Assembly (NCBI RefSeq): GCF_030816115.1 | Contig: NZ_JAUSXQ010000001.1 | Coordinates: forward strand, 2,914,001 to 2,978,000 | Reading direction: 5' to 3' | Source: Chryseobacterium sp. W4I1 | GTDB lineage: Bacteria; Bacteroidota; Bacteroidia; Flavobacteriales; Weeksellaceae | Length of the DNA: 64,000 nucleotides | Shown here: piece by piece, positions 501-9,699 of the stretch | Layout of the letters: each line of letters opens with the position of its first letter | Position numbering within the stretch: the stretch's first letter is position 1 | Notes under the pieces: generated by a model | What the model saw: only the letters and a program-made list of their open reading frames with translations | What the model was told of the DNA's origin: nothing | Database searches by the model: none | Program-made: the position numbers and the translations under genes

Positions 501-567
501 CATAGAAGTGTAATTTATTACTCATTAGACAATTAACGATAAATAAATTTAACTGAAATAACACTAA

Positions 568-606
568 AACGTGAATAATTTATTGTTCACGTTATTTTTT
601 TTTATA
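568..606 (+). terminator. Rho-independent terminator after the PPK2 gene
   Basis: An 8-bp stem AACGTGAA / TTCACGTT (568-575 with 586-593) is followed by a T-rich tract to about 606. It separates the kinase from the A/B array. Confidence 0.85.
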
Positions 607-653
607 CATTTATGAAAAATTAATTTTTTAACACCAATCATTAAACTTTAACC

Positions 654-1031
654 ATGAAAAAACATTTATTATTATCAGCAATCGCTGTAATAAGTCTCAT
701 TTCCTGTAATAATGAGGCAACAACTGTAAATACTTTAGAAAGCATGAAGACTCCGCAAATGGAGAATTTTAATAAAGCTTTTAAAAGTTTGGGTGATCCT
801 CAAAACAGACCTACTGAAGAGGAAAAGCAGAGAAACACCTCTGAGCTCAGCGACAGAAGAAAGGCTCTTCTGGTTCCTGCCTCTAAAGAACTTATCCTCT
901 CTACAGGAGTTACAGAAGCTGAACTTACGAGAAAAACGGGCGGAGATATGAGCCAGACAATTGTTTGGGCCACGCAGATCTATATGCAGAAAAGTGATGA
1001 GATCCGTAAGAACTTAAAATCAGAGAAATAG
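654..1031 (+). CDS. Array lipoprotein A1, unknown family
   Basis: 125 residues. A lysine start and hydrophobic core end in the lipobox LISC, with the lipidated Cys at position 18, so this is a predicted lipoprotein. The mature part (about 108 residues) is rich in charged residues and probably helical, with the family core PQMENF-KAFKSLGDPQNRP, TSELSDRRKALLVP and IVWATQIYMQKSDEIRKN. I do not recognise the family. A1 is the most divergent of the seven copies: N for D in MENFNKAF, EEKQRN for EERKRN, and EATTVNTLES near the N-terminus. It shares SQTIVW and RKNLKSEK only with A2. It lies 1 nt before B1, which suggests translational coupling. The residues after the Cys (NNE) are only weakly like a surface-export signal. 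Confidence 0.9.
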   Translation: MKKHLLLSAIAVISLISCNNEATTVNTLESMKTPQMENFNKAFKSLGDPQNRPTEEEKQRNTSELSDRRKALLVPASKELILSTGVTEAELTRKTGGDMSQTIVWATQIYMQKSDEIRKNLKSEK

Positions 1032-1032
1032 T

Positions 1033-1578
1033 ATGAAAAAGTTTTTACTGCTGCTCGGCATATGCGCTGTTTCTTCGGCGTATGCTCAGGGAGGAACGCT
1101 GATCATTCAGAATCTCACTACTAATTATGATTTCCACGGAAATATTTATGCTAATAATAATACCGGAGGTGGATGTTATCCGATAGTCACCTCCAAAGAT
1201 CCTGATCCTATCATAGTGCCGGCGGGAGCTACTGCAAAATATGAAAACTACAGGGATCAGTATTCTTCTTCGGGGTTTCCGGTTTCTAGCTGGAACGTTT
1301 ATTTGGGAGCAGGATCTCCTGTGTCACCAAGACCATGGAACCATGGCAGCCTTGTTCCGGGCGGGATTATTTCCAATAACACCAAGTGGTCGATGTCTAA
1401 ATTCCAAATGTATCACGCAGGCACTTCGGTCCCGGAGACCTATTTTAACGGAGATATAGGAGGTACAGCGGCACCCTGCAATACAGCTCCTGATGTTGTC
1501 ACAACGGCATGGGGAAGTGCGAAGTGGTTCACTATTACTTCCGGTACAGATGTATACACTTACCTAATCATTCAATAA
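1033..1578 (+). CDS. Array secreted protein B1, unknown family
   Basis: 181 residues with a Sec signal peptide ending in AYAQ (about residue 19). The mature part shows the B-family layout: an N-terminal strand with TLIIQN, a first Cys (C48) in GGGCYP, PAGAT, YENYRDQ, PWNHGSLVPGG, ISNNTKW, FQMYHAGT, a second Cys (C149) in APCN, and a C-terminal WFTITS followed by a strand ending YLIIQ. The two mature Cys are probably a disulfide. It is the only copy that does not end in an aromatic residue or YP. It starts 1 nt after A1. No known domain is recognised. Confidence 0.9.
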   Translation: MKKFLLLLGICAVSSAYAQGGTLIIQNLTTNYDFHGNIYANNNTGGGCYPIVTSKDPDPIIVPAGATAKYENYRDQYSSSGFPVSSWNVYLGAGSPVSPRPWNHGSLVPGGIISNNTKWSMSKFQMYHAGTSVPETYFNGDIGGTAAPCNTAPDVVTTAWGSAKWFTITSGTDVYTYLIIQ

Positions 1579-1598
1579 ACCATTCACCTTATATTATT

Positions 1599-2132
1599 AT
1601 GAAAAAGATATCCTTACTTTTATCTGCTTTGGCAGGAGTACTTTCTTTTGCACAGAGCTCTGCTTTATTTGTAGAAAACTACAGTATTTATAATGCTGTT
1701 GGAAGACTGCGTACGGGAATGCCGGGCGGCGCAGCAGGTCCTTATATGTTTGCAGCCCCCAACCCTCCGTTTGGAAGCTACACTGTTCCTGCGGGAAATT
1801 CCACTCAATACAACACATTTGATACGAGCGGGACAGTAGCTCTCCCTATAGTCAAGTGGTATGTTGGAGATGCCACAAATCCTGCCAACAATGGAACATT
1901 TGCCTATAACGACCCTTTTATCACGTCTGTGATGAATCCTTCCAATGAATGGGGCGGATTTCATTTCTGGCTTGTAGATCCTTCCACCAATAATACTGTT
2001 GATTCTTATGAATTGGGAGATCCTACCATCTATCCGGGATTCAGCCCTTCGCTTACGGGTAGTGTTTCCAGTGCAGACTGGTTCACTATAAGTACCCCTA
2101 CAGGAGCTATTACTTATATGCTGATCTTTTAA
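1599..2132 (+). CDS. Array secreted protein B2, Cys-less subtype
   Basis: 177 residues from the ATG at 1599, chosen because it begins a normal signal peptide (MKKISLLL to SFAQ); an upstream in-frame ATG at 1509 would overlap B1 by 70 nt. Together with B4 it forms a distinct subtype: no cysteine in the mature part, PYMFA and PNPPF in place of the CYP segment, VGDATNPANNGTFAYN in place of the WNH segment, and a conserved D-x-x-E-L/V-G-D-P before the C-terminal ADWFTISTPTG and YMLIF. It follows B1 directly without its own A gene and is followed by a terminator hairpin, so A1-B1-B2 can form one transcript. Confidence 0.88.
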   Translation: MKKISLLLSALAGVLSFAQSSALFVENYSIYNAVGRLRTGMPGGAAGPYMFAAPNPPFGSYTVPAGNSTQYNTFDTSGTVALPIVKWYVGDATNPANNGTFAYNDPFITSVMNPSNEWGGFHFWLVDPSTNNTVDSYELGDPTIYPGFSPSLTGSVSSADWFTISTPTGAITYMLIF

Positions 2133-2138
2133 GACATT

Positions 2139-2170
2139 GGCAGCTGTTTAAACGGCTGCCTATTTTATTG
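2139..2170 (+). terminator. Terminator hairpin inside the A/B array
   Basis: GGCAGC (2139-2144) pairs with GCTGCC (2155-2160), followed by TATTTTATTG. The B2-A2 gap is 133 nt, the longest in the array, so a new transcript may begin before A2. I see no clear TAnnTTTG box in the gap. Confidence 0.6.
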
Positions 2171-2265
2171 AATACCATTGACGGGAGGGCATTTTTGCTT
2201 TCCAAGAGCTTTCTATGCCTAATGTCAAACAATATTTTAATGTTTATTCTAAATATAATTTAATC

Positions 2266-2643
2266 ATGAAAAAACTTCTTTTATCGGCTGTGTTAGCCGT
2301 TTCAACGTTGGGATCGTGCAGCAACGAAAGCGCTGCAGTCAACGCTGTGGAAAGTATGAAAAGCCCGCAGATGGAAAATTTTGATAAGGCTTTTAAAAGT
2401 CTTGGCGATCCACAAAACAGACCTACCGAAGAGGAGAGAAAAAGAAACACCTCAGAACTGAGTGACAGAAGAAAAGCGCTTCTGGTTCCGGCTTCTAAAG
2501 AGCTGATCCTTTCCACAGGGGTTACAGAAGCTGAACTTACGAGAAAGACAGGGGGTGACATGAGCCAGACGATTGTCTGGGCTACGCAGATCTATATGCA
2601 GAAGAGTGACGAAATCCGTAAAAATTTAAAATCTGAGAAATAA
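2266..2643 (+). CDS. Array lipoprotein A2, unknown family
   Basis: 125 residues from the ATG at 2266; an ATG 51 nt upstream would add 17 non-signal-like residues. Lipobox LGSC, Cys 18, then SNESAAVNAVES. The mature core matches the other copies with no indel. SQTIVW and RKNLKSEK group it with A1, whereas A3-A7 carry SQIIVW and NIKS. It follows the internal terminator and lies 2 nt before B3, so it probably heads the second transcription unit. Confidence 0.9.
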   Translation: MKKLLLSAVLAVSTLGSCSNESAAVNAVESMKSPQMENFDKAFKSLGDPQNRPTEEERKRNTSELSDRRKALLVPASKELILSTGVTEAELTRKTGGDMSQTIVWATQIYMQKSDEIRKNLKSEK

Positions 2644-2645
2644 AT

Positions 2646-3149
2646 ATGAAAAAGCTTTTAACCATCATTGGATTCATATCGGCGGCATCGGTATATGCTC
2701 AGGGAGGTCCGCTTATCATTAACAATTATACTAGTTATGATTTTCACACTCGGGTAACTGCGGCTAATCTCTCGACCCCGGGCTGCTATTTTTATGTAGC
2801 ATTAGACAATCCTGAACTTGTTATTTCCGGTGTGAGTTCTGTTAATTATAACAGTTTCAATATTCCGGGCACTTACTGGAAAGTGGCTACATCACCTTCT
2901 CCTGCCACTCTAAGACCTGGAACCAGCCCAAGCCTTATGTTGGGAGGAGTGATTTCTAACAATACAAAATGGGTGATATCCCAATTCCAGTTTTATCAGT
3001 CGGGAACACTTTTATCAACGGGAGCTGTAGGAGATGCATCTTATACTTGTGATCCGGTTTCCAGTGTTATCAATACTCCACAAGCCATGGTAGAGTGGTT
3101 TACGATTACTTCCGCAGGTACTACCTCAACTTATCTCCAAATATATTAA
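2646..3149 (+). CDS. Array secreted protein B3, shortest and divergent
   Basis: 167 residues, the shortest B copy, with signal peptide to VYAQ. It keeps both Cys (C47 in PGCYF, C135 in YTCD), ISNNTKW, VEWFTITS and the YLQIY end. It lacks the PADSH-GNG and YRDQ segments and the WNH motif; the middle is replaced by SGVSSVNYNSFNIPGTYWKV. This intermediate pattern links the Cys-containing and Cys-less subtypes. It begins 2 nt after A2. Confidence 0.88.
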   Translation: MKKLLTIIGFISAASVYAQGGPLIINNYTSYDFHTRVTAANLSTPGCYFYVALDNPELVISGVSSVNYNSFNIPGTYWKVATSPSPATLRPGTSPSLMLGGVISNNTKWVISQFQFYQSGTLLSTGAVGDASYTCDPVSSVINTPQAMVEWFTITSAGTTSTYLQIY

Positions 3150-3177
3150 TCAATCCAAAAACAATATCCTATTCCTT

Positions 3178-3555
3178 ATGAAAAAACATTTTTTATTAGC
3201 TGTTATTGCTGTATTAAGTTTTACTTCCTGTAATAATGAAGGTTCTGCCGTAAATACTGTGGAAAGCATGAAGACTCCGCAGATGGAAAACTTTGATAAG
3301 GCTTTTAAGAGCCTTGGAGATCCTCAGAACAGACCTACTGAGGAGGAAAGAAAAAGAAATACTTCGGAACTGAGCGACAGAAGAAAAGCGCTTCTGGTTC
3401 CTTCTTCTAAAGAACTGATCCTGTCTACAGGCATTACAGAAGCTGAGCTGACAAGAAAAACCGGTGGTGATATGAGCCAAATTATTGTCTGGGCTACTCA
3501 GATCTACATGCAGAAAAGCGATGAGATTCGTAAAAATATTAAGTCTGAAAAATAA
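3178..3555 (+). CDS. Array lipoprotein A3, unknown family
   Basis: 125 residues. Lipobox FTSC (Cys 18), then NNEGSAVNTVES. Differences from the consensus are few: S for A in VPSSKEL and I for V in GITEAEL. It follows B3 by 28 nt. The gap to B4 is 26 nt, unusually long for an A-to-B junction, and B4 is a Cys-less B. Confidence 0.9.
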   Translation: MKKHFLLAVIAVLSFTSCNNEGSAVNTVESMKTPQMENFDKAFKSLGDPQNRPTEEERKRNTSELSDRRKALLVPSSKELILSTGITEAELTRKTGGDMSQIIVWATQIYMQKSDEIRKNIKSEK

Positions 3556-3581
3556 ATACTAACCATTAAACGAATGTATAT

Positions 3582-4127
3582 ATGAAAAAACTAAGCATTA
3601 TATTAGGTATTTCAGCAGGAATAGCTGTTTCTGCGCAATCTTCTACCCTGATGATCAATAATTATAGCAGTTATGATGCTGCAGGAAGATTTATGACGGT
3701 AGGCTCAGCAGGATCCGGATCATCGCAGCCGTACATGTATGCACTTCCTAACTCGCCTTATACGGTATACACTATTCCCGCAGGAGGTTACACCAAATAT
3801 GATAAGTTTGACAATACGGGTGGCTCAAATCCTATTCCTATTTCCGGCTGGTATTATATAGATCCTTTAAACAGTGCGAATACTGGAAATTACGCCTACA
3901 ATCATCCTACCATTACAGCAGTGACCGCTGTTGATGAGTGGATGGGCTTTGCCTTTTCACTTACTGATGTTACGGGATACACCTTTGATACGTTTGAGGT
4001 AGGAGATCCTGTACTTTCGGGAGGCTTTTTAAGCACAACACAGACAGGGCCTAATACAGGAAGTTCAGCAGACTGGTTCACGATTACAACACCGGGCGGG
4101 CAGATCACTTATTTCCAGATTTTTTAA
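3582..4127 (+). CDS. Array secreted protein B4, Cys-less subtype
   Basis: 181 residues with signal peptide to VSAQ. It has no cysteine and matches B2 in layout: STLMINNYSSYDAAGRF, QPYMYALPNSPY, YTIPAGG-TKYDKFD, NTGNYAYNHPTI, DEWMGFAFSL, F-EVGDP, SSADWFTITTPGG and the YFQIF end. Unlike B2 it has its own upstream A gene (A3). Ser/Gly/Thr and aromatic residues dominate and no long helix is evident, consistent with a beta-rich fold (inference). Confidence 0.88.
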   Translation: MKKLSIILGISAGIAVSAQSSTLMINNYSSYDAAGRFMTVGSAGSGSSQPYMYALPNSPYTVYTIPAGGYTKYDKFDNTGGSNPIPISGWYYIDPLNSANTGNYAYNHPTITAVTAVDEWMGFAFSLTDVTGYTFDTFEVGDPVLSGGFLSTTQTGPNTGSSADWFTITTPGGQITYFQIF

Positions 4128-4184
4128 TATCTCATGATAACCAAATTTATTATTCCAAAAACTGACTATTCAAAAAATCTAACT

Positions 4185-4562
4185 ATGAAAAAATACTTCT
4201 TATCAGCTCTAATAGCTGTTTTAACATTATCATCATGTAGCAATGAAGGGAGTGCCGTAAATACTGTAGAAAGTATGAAGTCTCCACAAATGGAGAATTT
4301 CGATAAAGCTTTTAAAAGCCTTGGAGATCCACAGAACAGACCTACCGAGGAGGAAAGAAAAAGAAATACTTCGGAACTGAGTGACAGAAGAAAGGCTCTT
4401 CTTGTTCCTGCCTCCAAAGAACTGATTCTTTCTTCAGGTGTTACCGAAGCTGAACTCACCAGAAAAACAGGTGGTGACATGAGCCAGATTATCGTTTGGG
4501 CTACCCAGATCTATATGCAGAAAAGTGATGAAATCCGTAAAAATATTAAATCTGAAAAATAA
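4185..4562 (+). CDS. Array lipoprotein A4, unknown family
   Basis: 125 residues from the ATG at 4185; an ATG at 4134 would add 17 residues ahead of a normal lipoprotein signal. Lipobox LSSC (Cys 18), then SNEGSAVNTVES. The mature part is at or close to the array consensus, with S for T in ILSSGVTEAEL, a change shared with A5. It begins 57 nt after B4 and ends 3 nt before B5. Confidence 0.9.
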   Translation: MKKYFLSALIAVLTLSSCSNEGSAVNTVESMKSPQMENFDKAFKSLGDPQNRPTEEERKRNTSELSDRRKALLVPASKELILSSGVTEAELTRKTGGDMSQIIVWATQIYMQKSDEIRKNIKSEK

Positions 4563-4565
4563 TCT

Positions 4566-5123
4566 ATGAAAAAACTACTGACTATATTAGGGATAACATT
4601 GGCTTCTATGGCTTATTCACAGGGAGGAACCCTCATTGTCAACAATTATTCTGCCTATGAATACCGCGGAGCTCTCATTGCCAATAATTTCTCTGGAGGA
4701 TGCTACCCTGTGATCGGAACCAATGATCCGGTTATTATCCCTCCGGACTCTCATATCGGTAATGGAAATGCATTGATCTATACCAACTACAGGGATCAGT
4801 TCGGTACATCTCTTTACCCTATGCTCAACTGGACGGTTTCTATTGCCGCAAACAGTTCGAATGTAAGACCCTGGAACCACGGCAGTCTAGTTCCGGGCGG
4901 CGTAATATCCAACAATACCAAATGGTCCGGCACCAAGTTTGAGATGTACGATCTGGCAACATCTTCTTACGTTACGGACTTCCATGCCAATATGACTGTT
5001 GCAGCAAACCCATGCAATGGAGTGATGGATTATTTTGTGACTCCAAGCGGAGCCAACAGTGCAGAAATGTTTGTCATCACTACCAGCACCGGGTTGGTAG
5101 AAACTTATCTACAGCTTTATTAG
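4566..5123 (+). CDS. Array secreted protein B5, unknown family
   Basis: 185 residues with signal peptide to AYSQ. A typical Cys-type B: TLIVNNYSAYEYRG, C46 in GGCYP, IIPPDSHIGNGNAL, YTNYRDQFGTSLYP, RPWNHGSLVPGGVIS, NNTKW, FEMYD, C150 in NPCNG, then DYFVTPSG-NSAEMFVITTS and the YLQLY end. The NSAEMF form of the C-terminal motif is shared with B6, B7 and B9, while B1, B3, B8 and B10 carry a W (EWF/KWF) there. Confidence 0.9.
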   Translation: MKKLLTILGITLASMAYSQGGTLIVNNYSAYEYRGALIANNFSGGCYPVIGTNDPVIIPPDSHIGNGNALIYTNYRDQFGTSLYPMLNWTVSIAANSSNVRPWNHGSLVPGGVISNNTKWSGTKFEMYDLATSSYVTDFHANMTVAANPCNGVMDYFVTPSGANSAEMFVITTSTGLVETYLQLY

Positions 5124-5162
5124 GAACAACCTATTATTGATTCACCAAAATAAAATTTAACT

Positions 5163-5540
5163 ATGAAAAAATATTTTTTATCGGCTGTACTGGCCATTTT
5201 AACCTTATCATCATGTAACAATGAGGGATCCGCAGTAAATACTGTAGAAAGTATGAAAACTCCACAGATGGAAAACTTCGACAAAGCTTTTAAAAGTTTA
5301 GGAGATCCACAGAACAGACCTACGGAAGAGGAAAGAAAAAGAAACACTTCAGAACTGAGTGACAGAAGAAAAGCACTACTGGTTCCGGCATCTAAGGAAC
5401 TTATCCTTTCTTCCGGCGTTACAGAAGTTGAGCTTATGAGAAAAACAGGTGGCGATATGAGCCAGATCATCGTTTGGGCCACGCAGATCTATATGCAGAA
5501 AAGTGATGAAATCAAAAAAAATATTAAATCAGACAAATAA
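5163..5540 (+). CDS. Array lipoprotein A5, unknown family
   Basis: 125 residues. Lipobox LSSC (Cys 18), then NNEGSAVNTVES. It has the most C-terminal changes: VTEVELMRK for VTEAELTRK, and EIKKNIKSDK for EIRKNIKSEK. Many codons differ synonymously from A1 across the invariant PTEEERKRNTSELSDRR block, so the protein identity is not simply recent DNA copying. It is 9 nt upstream of B6 and heads the A5-B6-B7-B8 run. Confidence 0.9.
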   Translation: MKKYFLSAVLAILTLSSCNNEGSAVNTVESMKTPQMENFDKAFKSLGDPQNRPTEEERKRNTSELSDRRKALLVPASKELILSSGVTEVELMRKTGGDMSQIIVWATQIYMQKSDEIKKNIKSDK

Positions 5541-5549
5541 TTAATTGAT

Positions 5550-6113
5550 ATGAAAAAATTACTGACAGTATTACTTTTAGCCGCTTTTTCCCTTGGATAT
5601 TCGCAGGGAGGAACTCTTATTCTGAATAATTATTCCCATTATGATTTTGTGGGGTATATTATTGCCAATAATCTGGCAGGAGGATGTTACCCTTGGATAA
5701 CTTCAGCAAACCCGGAAATGGTAAGGGTTCCTGCCGATTCCCATATGGGTAACGGGCAAGAACTGAGATATGACAACTATAGAGACCAGTATAATAATTC
5801 TTCATACCCGATGGCTTCATGGTTGATAACTCTATCCAATACCACTAATATCACAAGACCCTGGGATCATCCTGCTCTGATGCCGGGTGGAGTTTATTCT
5901 AATAATACGAGATGGGCAACCACAAAATTTGTAATGTATTATCCGGGAACAACCACTTTAGCTCCGGACAATTTCAATGGTGCCGTAACTATAGCAGCCA
6001 ATTCCTGCTATACTGCTCCTGACCACTTTACAACATCTACAGGAAGCAACAGTGCGGAAATATTTACGATAAGCAGCGGTGGCACTAATTATACTTATAT
6101 CCAACTTTTCTAA
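5550..6113 (+). CDS. Array secreted protein B6, unknown family
   Basis: 187 residues, the longest B, with signal peptide to GYSQ. TLILNNYSHYDFVG, C46 in GGCYPW, VPADSHMGNGQEL, YDNYRDQYNNSSYP, RPWDHPALMPGG, YSNNTRW, FVMYYPGT, C153 in NSCY, NSAEIFTISSGG and the YIQLF end. Its stop codon overlaps a possible ATG of B7 by one base (TAATG). Confidence 0.9.
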   Translation: MKKLLTVLLLAAFSLGYSQGGTLILNNYSHYDFVGYIIANNLAGGCYPWITSANPEMVRVPADSHMGNGQELRYDNYRDQYNNSSYPMASWLITLSNTTNITRPWDHPALMPGGVYSNNTRWATTKFVMYYPGTTTLAPDNFNGAVTIAANSCYTAPDHFTTSTGSNSAEIFTISSGGTNYTYIQLF

Positions 6114-6118
6114 TGAGT

Positions 6119-6658
6119 ATGAAAAAGATTTTAACCGTCTTAGGAATAACAGCAGCCTCTTTTGTTTATTCACAAGGGAGAATTATCGTAAACAACTATT
6201 CTAAATATGACTTCCATGGTTTTTTAATAACCACTAATTCTACCACGGGATGTTATCCACGTGCAGGAAACAGCGGAGCCATAGTAATTCCTGCCGAATG
6301 CCACATGGGTAATGGACTTGCACTTGTATATGAGGGCTACAGAGATCAGTTTATTTCTTCTCTTTATCCCACTACTAACTGGGAGGTGACGGTCAATCCT
6401 CTGACATCTTCCATAATGGCCTGGGATGATGTAAATCTTGCTCCCGTCAGTACGATCGCAACGACTACAAAATGGTATGCCACTAAATTTGACATGACAG
6501 AACCGGGAACCAATATATCGGTACAGGATTTCCATACGAATTTGAATATTGCCAATCCTTGCAGCCCTGGTATTATGGATTACTATGTTACTCCTTCTGG
6601 AAATAACAGCGCAGAAATGTTCACCATAGGAAGCATAACCTACCTACAGCTTTTCTAA
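6119..6658 (+). CDS. Array secreted protein B7, extra cysteine
   Basis: 179 residues from the ATG at 6119. An in-frame ATG at 6113 overlaps the B6 stop and would only add Met-Ser, so coupling to B6 is likely with either start. Signal peptide to VYSQ. It has three mature cysteines: the usual pair (C45 in TGCYP, C148 in NPCS) plus C61, because the family PADSH is PAECH here. The WNH motif is degenerate (AWDDVNLAPV) and the ISNNTKW motif reads IATTTKW. NSAEMFTIGS and YLQLF close the protein. It has no A gene of its own. Confidence 0.88.
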   Translation: MKKILTVLGITAASFVYSQGRIIVNNYSKYDFHGFLITTNSTTGCYPRAGNSGAIVIPAECHMGNGLALVYEGYRDQFISSLYPTTNWEVTVNPLTSSIMAWDDVNLAPVSTIATTTKWYATKFDMTEPGTNISVQDFHTNLNIANPCSPGIMDYYVTPSGNNSAEMFTIGSITYLQLF

Positions 6659-6686
6659 ATAGCAACCTTCAAATCAATAATAAAAT

Positions 6687-7244
6687 ATGAAGAAAACATT
6701 CGCACTTCTTAGCCTTTGCCTGATGTCTTATGCTTATGCGCAGCACAGTATTATGATTGTCAACAACTTTTCTACCACATTCGATTTTCAGGGAAATTTG
6801 AGTGCCCATAACTATTCAGGAAGCTGCTACCCGTATGTAACATCCAGCACTCCTACCATGATCACAGTGCCGGCAGATTCTCATACATCTAATGGCAAAG
6901 AGCTGGCTTATAAAAATTTTAAAGATCAATTTACAGGATCTTTATATCCTACGACTAACTGGACGGTACAGACGAGTCCTACATCATCCACAATCAGAGC
7001 ATGGAATCATCCAAGTATTGCACCGGGCGGTGTCATTTCTTATAATGTTAAATGGGCTTCTTCCCAGTTTCAGATGTATTATGCAGGGACCTCTATACCG
7101 GAACCTTCGTTCGGCGGACTGATCGGGGAATCTCCTGACCCATGTACGGGTGCTCCGGGATATATTTCAACGTCATATGGAGATGCAGAATGGTTTAATA
7201 TTACAACAGCCAACGTTACCTACTCTTATTTACAAGTTTATTAA
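6687..7244 (+). CDS. Array secreted protein B8, unknown family
   Basis: 185 residues with signal peptide to AYAQ (one Cys inside the signal). Mature C47 in GSCYPY and C153 in DPCTG. VPADSHTSNGKEL, YKNFKDQF (variant of YRDQ), SLYPTTNW, RAWNHPSIAPGGVIS, FQMYYAGT, AEWFNITT and the YLQVY end. It is the third consecutive B after A5 and lies 28 nt after B7. Confidence 0.9.
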   Translation: MKKTFALLSLCLMSYAYAQHSIMIVNNFSTTFDFQGNLSAHNYSGSCYPYVTSSTPTMITVPADSHTSNGKELAYKNFKDQFTGSLYPTTNWTVQTSPTSSTIRAWNHPSIAPGGVISYNVKWASSQFQMYYAGTSIPEPSFGGLIGESPDPCTGAPGYISTSYGDAEWFNITTANVTYSYLQVY

Positions 7245-7276
7245 TCACAGAAATCAAACCTAAATTTAAATTAATC

Positions 7277-7654
7277 ATGAAAAAATTTTTTATATCAGCT
7301 ATAGTAGCTGTTTTAACATTATCATCATGCAACAATGAAGGAAGTCCTGTAAATACCGTAGAAAGTATGAAGACTCCGCAGATGGAAAACTTCGACAAAG
7401 CCTTCAAAAGCCTGGGCGATCCACAAAACAGACCTACTGAGGAGGAAAGAAAAAGAAATACTTCGGAATTAAGTGACAGAAGAAAAGCGCTTCTGGTTCC
7501 GGCTTCTAAAGAGCTGATCCTTTCCACAGGCGTTACAGAAGCTGAACTTACGAGAAAGTCAGGCGATGATATGAGCCAAATTATTGTCTGGGCTACGCAG
7601 ATCTATATGCAGAAGAGTGACGAGATTAGAAAAAATATTAAATCTGAGAAATAA
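7277..7654 (+). CDS. Array lipoprotein A6, unknown family
   Basis: 125 residues. Lipobox LSSC (Cys 18), then NNEGSPVNTVES, with P for A. The mature part differs from the consensus mainly at RKSGDDMSQ for RKTGGDMSQ. It follows the B6-B7-B8 run by 32 nt and precedes B9 by 3 nt. Confidence 0.9.
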   Translation: MKKFFISAIVAVLTLSSCNNEGSPVNTVESMKTPQMENFDKAFKSLGDPQNRPTEEERKRNTSELSDRRKALLVPASKELILSTGVTEAELTRKSGDDMSQIIVWATQIYMQKSDEIRKNIKSEK

Positions 7655-7657
7655 ACT

Positions 7658-8209
7658 ATGAAAAAAATTATAACCTTATTAAGCTTTGCGGCATCAGTAG
7701 CTGCATACGCACAGGGAGCTCTTGTAATCAACAACTACACAACTTACGATTTCCGGGGTGATCTGATTGCTCACAATTTAATATCTCCCTGCTATCCAAG
7801 AGTTGCGAACAATACTCCGATTATAGTTCCAGCTGATTCTCATATAGGAAACGGGCTGCAGCTTCAGTATGAAAATTACAGAGTTCAGTTCATAAATTCC
7901 CTATATCCGATGGCCGAATGGAGCGTATCTACATCAGCAAACACTACTAATGTAAGATCATGGGATAATAATAGCCTACTTCCCGGAGGCGTAATTTCAA
8001 GCAATACCAAATGGGGTACGGCAAAATTTGGAATGGTGTACGCAGGAACAACCACTAATGTTCCAGGTTTCAGTGTGAATATCTCTATAGCTGGTAATCC
8101 TTGTTATACTTATCCAGACTATTTCACAACCTCCAGTGGTCTTAACAGTGCGGAAATGTTTACCATTACAAGTGGGAGTAATGTTACTGCATACCTCCAG
8201 ATTTATTAG
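7658..8209 (+). CDS. Array secreted protein B9, unknown family
   Basis: 183 residues with signal peptide to AYAQ. ALVINNYTTYDFRG, C45 in SPCYPR, IVPADSHIGNGLQL, YENYRVQF (V for D in the YRDQ motif), SLYPMAEW, RSWDNNSLLPGGVIS, SNTKW, FGMVYAGT, C149 in NPCY, DYFTTSSG-NSAEMFTITSG and the YLQIY end. It closely resembles B5 and B6. Confidence 0.9.
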   Translation: MKKIITLLSFAASVAAYAQGALVINNYTTYDFRGDLIAHNLISPCYPRVANNTPIIVPADSHIGNGLQLQYENYRVQFINSLYPMAEWSVSTSANTTNVRSWDNNSLLPGGVISSNTKWGTAKFGMVYAGTTTNVPGFSVNISIAGNPCYTYPDYFTTSSGLNSAEMFTITSGSNVTAYLQIY

Positions 8210-8239
8210 TCAAAATATCAAACCTAAATTTTAATTTCA

Positions 8240-8617
8240 ATGAAAAAACTCTTTATAACTGCAGTTTTTGCCGCTTTAACTTTAGCTTCATGTAATAACG
8301 AAGGAAGTGCCGTAAATACTGTTGAAAGCATGAAATCTCCACAAATGGAAAATTTTGATAAAGCTTTCAAGAGCTTAGGAGATCCACAAAACAGACCGAC
8401 TGAAGAGGAAAGAAAAAGAAATACTTCCGAACTGAGTGACCGGAGAAAAGCACTTCTGGTTCCGGCCTCTAAGGAACTGATTCTTTCCACAGGCATCACA
8501 GAAGCTGAGATTACAAGAAAGACGAACGGGGATATGAGCCAGATTATCGTTTGGGCAACGCAGATCTATATGCAGAAAAGCGACGAGATCCGTAAGAACA
8601 TCAAATCTGAAAAATAA
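8240..8617 (+). CDS. Array lipoprotein A7, unknown family
   Basis: 125 residues. Lipobox LASC (Cys 18), then NNEGSAVNTVES. Changes: GITEAEITRKTNGDMSQ for GVTEAELTRKTGGDMSQ. It is 30 nt after B9 and 3 nt before B10, and is the last A in the array. Confidence 0.9.
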   Translation: MKKLFITAVFAALTLASCNNEGSAVNTVESMKSPQMENFDKAFKSLGDPQNRPTEEERKRNTSELSDRRKALLVPASKELILSTGITEAEITRKTNGDMSQIIVWATQIYMQKSDEIRKNIKSEK

Positions 8618-8620
8618 ACT

Positions 8621-9172
8621 ATGAAAAAAATATTAACGTTAGCAGGTATCATTTCTGCATCAATGGTTTATTCACAAGGGATATTTATGCTGAATAATTA
8701 TTCTCCTCATGATTATCGTGGAAATCTTATGGCCATTAATCTTACCGGCTGCCTTCCTTCTGTCATGAATAATGACCCTGCCACAATGATCGTTCCAGCC
8801 AATTCACATATGGGAAATGGCCTTGCCTGGAAAATAGATAATTACAGGGATCAGTTCACTACTTCCCTATATCCTATTAACAACTGGATTGTAAGATTGA
8901 GTACATCTCCCGCCACTATCAGGGCATGGAATAATGGAAGTATGATTCCCGGCGGCGTCATTTCAATGAATACAAAATGGGTAACGTCAAAATTTGCCAT
9001 GTATTACGCAGGGACAGGCAACAAAGTAGTTGGATTTAATACTAATCTTGGAGATGCTACTCCTAATTCATGCGTCACCAGTGTTGATTACTTTTCCACG
9101 CCAGACGGATCCGCAGAATGGTTTACGATTACAGGAACTGAAACCATCACTTATTTACAAATATATCCATGA
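8621..9172 (+). CDS. Array secreted protein B10, unknown family
   Basis: 183 residues with signal peptide to VYSQ. IFMLNNYSPHDYRG, C44 in TGCLPS (L for Y in CYP), IVPANSHMGNGLAW, IDNYRDQFTTSLYP, RAWNNGSMIPGGVIS, MNTKW, FAMYYAGT, C151 in NSCV, AEWFTITG and a C-terminus YLQIYP that carries one extra Pro. Its stop codon overlaps the ATG of the short remnant ORF that follows (ATGA), the same kind of junction seen at true gene borders in the array. Confidence 0.9.
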   Translation: MKKILTLAGIISASMVYSQGIFMLNNYSPHDYRGNLMAINLTGCLPSVMNNDPATMIVPANSHMGNGLAWKIDNYRDQFTTSLYPINNWIVRLSTSPATIRAWNNGSMIPGGVISMNTKWVTSKFAMYYAGTGNKVVGFNTNLGDATPNSCVTSVDYFSTPDGSAEWFTITGTETITYLQIYP

Positions 9173-9315: not shown

Positions 9316-9350
9316 AGCCGTCTCTGCAAATTGCAGGACGGCTTTTTATA
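9316..9350. terminator. Bidirectional terminator between array and rnpB
   Basis: AGCCGTC (9316-9322) pairs with GACGGCT (9337-9343) and CTGCA with TGCAG inside, with an A-run before and a T-run after. It ends the array on the plus strand and can end rnpB on the minus strand. Confidence 0.85.
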
Positions 9351-9370
9351 AACAGTTTTGTAACTAAAAA

Positions 9371-9699
9371 TCACGAGAAAATCTGTAAGCCGGATTTTGT
9401 TCTTCCGAAGAAGTGCCTGTTATTTATCTGCGTTTTACATTGCTGCAAAACTTGAGCTGATTACCCCTCGGCTTTCGGGACGAGCCGCCCCTAATTTCCA
9501 TTGCTGAAAAGAACCGATATACTTATCATTGCACCGCAAAGAGTTTACCTGGTTTCACTACAGCCGAACTGTACCTGCTTTCTGTTGCACTTGTCCTACC
9601 CTCACGGGTGACGGATGTTATCCGCTTTGCTGCTCTATGGTGTCCGGACTTTCCTACCCCTGCCGAAACAGGAATCAACAAGCCGATTTTCTCGCGGTT
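9371..9699 (-). ncRNA. rnpB: RNase P RNA (M1 RNA)
   Basis: On the minus strand the sequence contains the conserved AGGAAAGTCCGGACACC block near the 5' end, a GAGGGTAGGACAAGTGC segment, the GTGAAACCAGGTAAACTC block, CGAGGGGTAATCAGC, and a 3' end with AAAATCCGGCTTACAG. The 5' CGAGAAAAT pairs with the 3' ATTTTCTCG to form P1, which sets the ends near 9699 and 9371. It is the catalytic RNA that matures tRNA 5' ends. Short ORFs overlapping it are not genes. Confidence 0.93.

What the first reader, a model, noticed from the sequence alone, without database searches (positions are those of the whole stretch)
654..9172. Tandem array of an invariant lipoprotein (A) and diversified secreted proteins (B)
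Seen in sequence: 17 genes on one strand, seven A (each 125 residues, no indel, lipobox Cys at 18) and ten B (167-187 residues, signal peptide YAQ/YSQ/FAQ/SAQ). Each A is followed by at least one B, and two runs have extra B genes (B1-B2 and B6-B7-B8). The invariant mature A core and variable B look like a constant-partner/variable-effector design. I recognise neither family. Candidates: surface display or adhesion, an effector with a shared tether or immunity partner, or a fibre system. None is proven.
Basis: partly seen in the sequence, partly recalled or inferred. Interest (0 to 1): 0.9.

Follow-up and report, generated by a model that had tools for sequence, protein, structure and literature searches.

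The report
Constant lipoprotein paired with diverse secreted proteins
A bacterium of the genus Chryseobacterium carries a row of seven nearly identical small lipoprotein genes, each placed directly in front of one or more of ten different secreted-protein genes; both protein families are unnamed, the pairing is kept in many species of the genus, and what the pair does is still unknown.

The parts
540..653 (+). Conserved upstream region of A1, probable promoter/leader of the array
   Evidence: Alignment of the 170 nt before A1 in 15 arrays shows long shared blocks; GTGAATAAT is kept in 13 of 15. Promoter role inferred; the sigma-70 scan found no more promoter-like sites than shuffles (30 against 26.2).
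654..1031 (+). A1, lipoprotein, 125 aa
1033..1578 (+). B1, secreted protein, 181 aa
   Evidence: partner in 11 of 14 other arrays
1599..2132 (+). B2, secreted protein, 177 aa, no Cys in mature part
   Evidence: 10 of 14
2139..2160 (+). Terminator-like hairpin between B2 and A2
   Evidence: 12 such sites in the region, shuffles 7.5 sd 2.7; in the 11 of 15 arrays given to the alignment 2 of 8 pairs have a compensatory change; not seen in L051 and L052
2183..2203 (+). Second hairpin region before A2 (weak in this window)
   Evidence: 1 of 8 pairs with a compensatory change
2266..2643 (+). A2, lipoprotein, 125 aa
2646..3149 (+). B3, secreted protein, 167 aa
   Evidence: 9 of 14
3178..3555 (+). A3, lipoprotein, 125 aa
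3582..4127 (+). B4, secreted protein, 181 aa, no Cys in mature part
   Evidence: 10 of 14
4185..4562 (+). A4, lipoprotein, 125 aa
4566..5123 (+). B5, secreted protein, 185 aa (structure model made of this one)
   Evidence: 4 of 14
5163..5540 (+). A5, lipoprotein, 125 aa (structure model made of this one)
5550..6113 (+). B6, secreted protein, 187 aa
   Evidence: 12 of 14
6119..6658 (+). B7, secreted protein, 179 aa
   Evidence: 8 of 14
6687..7244 (+). B8, secreted protein, 185 aa
   Evidence: 7 of 14
7277..7654 (+). A6, lipoprotein, 125 aa
7658..8209 (+). B9, secreted protein, 183 aa
   Evidence: 6 of 14
8240..8617 (+). A7, lipoprotein, 125 aa
8621..9172 (+). B10, secreted protein, 183 aa
   Evidence: 8 of 14
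9323..9337 (+). Terminator-like hairpin after B10, before the RNase P RNA gene (- strand)
   Evidence: consensus match only

Best explanation
The array is a set of A-B units. SHOWN by sequence: A lies just before B, A is one protein repeated, B are ten old, separately conserved types of one family, and A-B order is kept nearly wherever A was found. INFERRED: the units are co-expressed; A is a small all-helical lipoprotein anchored in the envelope facing the periplasm; B is an exported beta-sandwich, usually with one possible disulfide, with a signal peptide and without a type IX tail. A is the dedicated partner of B: it binds a face that all B of the same locus share, holds each newly exported B at the membrane in a safe, soluble or export-ready state, and releases it. 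A is made beside each B or B group to keep supply matched, which would explain why every A copy is separately held by selection. B types differ in what they bind outside, possibly membrane lipids or glycans.
For: A-B order in 150 of 153 A genes, median gap 5 nt. A and B distances agree between loci (Mantel r 0.73 over 61 pairs, 0 of 300 shuffles) while within 14 arrays A hardly differs (mean distance 0.08-0.16) although B does (0.49-0.64): one A surface must fit all B of its locus. Each mature A is under strong constraint: 21 window pairs dN 0.028-0.066 at dS 0.81-3.18; median omega 0.032 for within-genome A pairs against 0.115 for B orthologs and 0.27 for the A signal peptide; window copies differ at synonymous codons (0.59-0.61 identical) as much as A from different genomes (0.58), so selection and not recent copying keeps them alike. 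No export signal in 175 of 176 A (against PMC5080379 passages). Models: A helical, pLDDT 86.4, pTM 0.73; B beta-sandwich, pLDDT 89.3, pTM 0.83. Structural neighbours of B are mostly membrane- or glycan-binding domains (several family assignments recalled).
Confidence: 0.38

Rival explanations
1. Self-protection: B are membrane-active (aegerolysin- or actinoporin-like) proteins used against other cells, and A is a common periplasmic guard that blocks the membrane-binding face of every B.
For: Structural neighbours of B are dominated by cytolysin and aegerolysin domains; A is probably periplasm-facing; A precedes B so the guard would be made first.
Against: All Z at 6.2 or below; no PF06355 match; no profile link, though that test was weak; a common guard would need one gene, not seven; B orthologs show constraint rather than an arms race.
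Confidence: 0.2
2. Structural: A and B assemble together into a surface layer, fibre or envelope matrix, with A as the repeated base unit and B as exchangeable outer units.
For: Repeated constant unit with diversified partners; in six related loci the module sits beside a large type IX-secreted propeller-like protein.
Against: A has no export signal; no fimbrial family match above cut-off; the propeller-like protein is not found in this genome.
Confidence: 0.15
3. B are periplasmic or vesicle-borne ligand carriers and A relays their state, for example to the neighbouring sigma-factor operon.
For: An ECF sigma factor and a membrane protein lie downstream in the syntenic locus.
Against: Genes in the sigma-factor position also follow the single-pair loci; among the neighbours printed for other A-B loci none was recognised as a sigma factor (by eye); here it lies beyond a terminator-like hairpin and the RNase P RNA gene.
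Confidence: 0.08
4. No functional partnership: A is merely the conserved 5' part of a duplicating cassette, useful as a recombination handle, and B is carried along.
For: In several genomes A copies are closer to each other than to A elsewhere (49 of 88 A against 10 of 134 B have their nearest relative in the same genome), as copying between repeats would give.
Against: In the window none of 7 A behaves so, yet the protein is fixed although synonymous sites have diverged; pairing persists in single-pair loci without arrays.
Confidence: 0.1

Closest known systems
Aegerolysins (PF06355; OlyA/PlyA, RahU) and actinoporins
SitBAI cassettes of myxobacteria
   Same: An accessory envelope protein gene directly before a diversified exported protein gene, in several copies (PMC5562445, passages).
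   Different: There the lipoprotein is the toxin with a nuclease end and an immunity gene follows; here the lipoprotein is the upstream constant protein, with no toxin domain recognised and no third gene recurring inside the arrays.
Effector-immunity pairs (general knowledge, recalled)
   Same: Small gene beside a diversified exported protein gene.
   Different: Immunity proteins as a rule change with their toxin; A stays nearly the same within arrays.
Membrane-anchored dedicated chaperones such as lipase-specific foldases (recalled, no call)
   Same: Membrane-bound periplasmic helper encoded next to its exported client.
   Different: No sequence link was looked for; here one helper type would serve ten client types in one array.

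Membership tests
Aegerolysin (PF06355) | Match to the family profile | tested here: not met
   No PF06355 among Pfam matches of 6 of the 10 window B at E<=1 or of 33 diverse B at E<=0.1; PF06355 is in 3 of 173 genus genomes and not in this one
Aegerolysin (PF06355) | Aegerolysin beta-sandwich fold | tested here: inconclusive
Aegerolysin (PF06355) | Binding to specific membrane lipids | not testable with these tools
   needs purified protein
Actinoporin / cholesterol-dependent cytolysin C-terminal domain | Fold match | tested here: inconclusive
Surface-exposed Bacteroidota lipoprotein | Lipoprotein export signal: at least two acidic residues at +2 to +6 | tested here: not met
   present in 1 of 176 distinct A; a few Cys positions may be misplaced by the script; signal as given in PMC5080379 passages
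Bacterial lipoprotein | Signal peptide with lipobox Cys | tested here: met
   Cys 18 in 7 of 7; Ser-Cys nearly invariant in 99 aligned A; LPAM_1 matches A5 only below its cut-off, 16.6 of 20 bits
Type IX secretion cargo (for B) | C-terminal Por_Secre_tail/TIGR04183 domain | tested here: not met
   not among the Pfam or NCBIfam matches of 33 diverse B at E<=0.1
Effector-immunity pair | Immunity gene diversifies with its effector | tested here: not met
   within 14 arrays mean A distance 0.08-0.16 against B 0.49-0.64; correlations -0.45 to 0.55, 9 of 14 positive; between loci r 0.73
Effector-immunity pair | Recognisable toxin domain in B | tested here: inconclusive
   none in Pfam or NCBIfam (33 B) or PADLOC (2 B); unknown toxins cannot be excluded
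Mfa1-type fimbria (for A) | Match above family cut-off | tested here: not met
   5 of 25 A matched at E<=0.1 (best 8.5e-5); the one seen in detail scores 19 bits against 130, residues 1-75
SitBAI cassette | Downstream immunity gene and nuclease-ended lipoprotein | tested here: not met
   in 15 arrays no third gene family recurs between the A and B genes; no nuclease domain in 25 A

The most novel reading that the evidence does not exclude
One invariant, lipid-anchored periplasmic protein acts as the common escort and safety catch for a whole family of secreted membrane-binding beta-sandwich proteins (a one-lock-many-keys system), with a copy placed before each client or client group so that every client is made together with its catch; the ten clients target different lipids or glycans.
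Probability: 0.2. Interest if true: 0.78.

Novelty: categorically new. Interest (0 to 1): 0.62.

Why it matters
Two unnamed protein families form a two-gene unit, repeated up to 8 A per array and 11 A per genome in the genomes seen, that keeps one partner fixed while the other splits into conserved types. That is unusual: redundant copies normally drift or are lost, and very long-lasting concerted evolution is described as rare in prokaryotes (PMC6053082, abstract). If A is a universal partner of many B, it gives a clean natural experiment on how one protein surface serves many clients, and points to a large unstudied set of secreted Chryseobacterium proteins. 'Categorically new' means here that no known family or system could be assigned by the tests run; it is a verdict by exclusion and the mechanism is unproven.

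Tried and rejected

Dropped before counts: only 9 of 15 arrays were put in the trees, B frames of 150 aa or less, pairs with dS outside 0.1-2 (107 of 540 B pairs, 14 of 225 within-genome A pairs) and 37 of 225 signal-peptide pairs, 4 of 15 arrays were not given, A of 100 aa or less, and within-array values only for arrays with at least four pairs (L052 left out). Of the 66 stretches, the window was given, 61 were fetched because the A profile hit there and four (L153-L156) because B hit there; 'downstream' allowed an overlap of up to 150 nt. Several of the eight 'lone B' are probably false signal-peptide matches. Listings were cut by the tool.
Full report
WHAT IS THERE. Between a PPK2-type polyphosphate kinase gene (frame ending at 500) and an RNase P RNA gene on the other strand (9370-9694), followed by an ECF sigma factor gene, stand 17 intact genes on the + strand: seven A and ten B. 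A is 125 residues each time, with a lipobox Cys at 18. B has a signal peptide ending in YAQ, YSQ, FAQ or SAQ and 167-187 residues; eight of ten have at least two Cys in the mature part, B2 and B4 none. The gap from A to the next B is 1-9 nt in six of seven cases and 26 nt in the other, so A and B are probably translated together.

NO KNOWN FAMILY. Pfam, NCBIfam, PADLOC and PDB sequence searches give nothing above cut-off for A or B; the weak A matches whose positions are shown begin at residue 1. In the large protein collection A had 301 hits at E 0.001 (best 120 listed) and B 74, and divergent A 79; the organism names shown are all Chryseobacterium and the product names 'hypothetical protein', 'lipoprotein' or 'uncharacterized', apart from a few automatic labels. 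A genome scan with a close alignment gave 30 loci, all titled Chryseobacterium. The A profile hits 36 of 147 genomes, own genome included, all in this genus and none in the other 35 genera. The B profile hits 102 of 296 genomes of the family, many weakly; outside the genus four genomes of four genera have E below 1e-9.

A-B IS ONE UNIT. In 66 stretches examined, 153 A genes were found in 63; 150 have a B within 400 nt downstream on the same strand (overlap allowed), median gap 5 nt, 106 of 150 between -5 and 15 nt. This holds for A only about 30% identical to the window's, and for the very divergent pair elsewhere in this genome. The three exceptions are the last A of two arrays (L051, L052) and one A in L064, where the order is B-A-A-B.

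HOW THE ARRAY GREW. At the same place, after the 289-residue polyphosphate kinase gene, some genomes have a single A-B pair (L055-L059, L065) and others up to 8 A and 12 B; growth from one pair is the simplest reading, loss the alternative. In L049 the sigma-factor genes were not seen within the stretch. Up to 11 A were found per genome. All 15 arrays begin A-B-B-A. The sequence before A1 is strongly conserved, and the gap after B2 holds a terminator-like hairpin and a second hairpin in most of the 11 arrays aligned, with compensatory changes at 3 of 16 pairs (covariation term 0, so support is modest); L051 and L052, not in that alignment, do not show the first hairpin. The block A1-B1-B2 may thus be dosed separately.

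A IS FIXED, B IS DIVERSIFIED BUT STABLE. A tree of 84 B from 9 arrays groups them mainly by type across genomes (L049 and L051 partly by genome), while many of 57 A group by genome, except A1. Nearest DNA relative in the same genome: 49 of 88 A, 10 of 134 B, 8 of those 10 in L049, a metagenome-derived array. The window is an exception on the A side, 0 of 7. There the 21 A pairs have mature dN 0.028-0.066 at dS 0.81-3.18, and identical codons among synonymous positions are 0.59-0.61, like A from different genomes (0.58). So in this genome the A copies are old and held alike by selection; in some other genomes copying between A genes adds to it. Median omega: 0.032 for within-genome A pairs (211 of 225 usable), 0.115 for B orthologs (433 of 540), 0.27 for the A signal peptide (188 of 225). 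Each window B has a reciprocal best partner above 60% identity in 4 to 12 of 14 other arrays, at mean 66-85% identity, against 40-55% to its closest paralog in the window.

ONE A FOR MANY B. Over 61 A-B pairs outside the main arrays, A and B distances correlate at r 0.73 (0 of 300 shuffles as high). Within 14 arrays r runs from -0.45 to 0.55, positive in 9, with mean A distance 0.08-0.16 and B distance 0.49-0.64. Shared descent can produce the between-locus correlation, so it is not proof of contact; the sameness of A within arrays argues against a specific antidote for each B, though with 4-8 pairs per array weak tracking cannot be excluded.

WHERE THEY GO. Published surface-export signals of Bacteroidota lipoproteins need at least two acidic residues just after the Cys (PMC5080379, passages read). 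Of 176 distinct A, 1 has two, 163 more have a single one, mostly Glu at +4. The Chryseobacterium signal was not measured in what I read, so periplasm-facing is a prediction. B has no recognisable type IX tail.

A POSSIBLE THIRD PARTNER. In L153-L156 (four other genera), L070 and L080, a protein of about 600 residues with repeated WGTYxGG-like motifs (by eye) lies beside the module, whole in L153, L154, L070 and L080 and split in L155 and L156; a type IX tail is recognised above cut-off in L153, L155 and L080 and below it in L154 and L156, and one copy has a partial SBBP-propeller match. It is not found here. In those four genera A is partial in two loci and not found in two, and B is incomplete or split in two, so the modules there look decayed.

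MECHANISM AND VERDICT. The anatomy fits a dedicated partner: encoded just before B, anchored by lipid, probably on the side where B emerges, fixed because its surface must fit all B. I rate this 0.38. A common guard against membrane-active B (0.2) differs mainly in why A binds B, and the two can be told apart by deletion. Everything beyond gene order, conservation and the two models is inference. Novelty is by exclusion.

Noticed in passing
9370-9694, - strand: Bacterial class A RNase P RNA gene directly after the array (202 bits).
   Followed up: no
L099 4965-5877 (G000, about 1.031 Mb): A second, very divergent A-B pair in the same genome (A E 3e-7, B E 2e-4).
   Followed up: partly
L153, L154, L155, L156, L070, L080: A propeller-like protein of about 600 aa with a type IX tail in most copies, beside A-B modules in four other genera and two Chryseobacterium loci.
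   Followed up: partly
L157 4095-4967 (G169): Remnants of the propeller-like protein (209-aa frame) and of B (a piece of about 53 codons) without A, near the same ribosomal-protein genes as in L155, suggesting decay of the module.
   Followed up: no
2133-2265: Two hairpins between B2 and A2, conserved in most of 11 arrays aligned, possible attenuator.
   Followed up: partly
L051 9646-10029, L052 8528-9025: Array ends in an A without a following B.
   Followed up: no
L079 4092-14361 (G085): A second kind of array at another locus: five A, near-identical to each other but only about 36% identical to the window's, among nine diverse B.
   Followed up: partly
L171, L172, L173: True aegerolysin (PF06355) genes in 3 of 173 Chryseobacterium genomes, without signal peptide by eye.
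   Followed up: no
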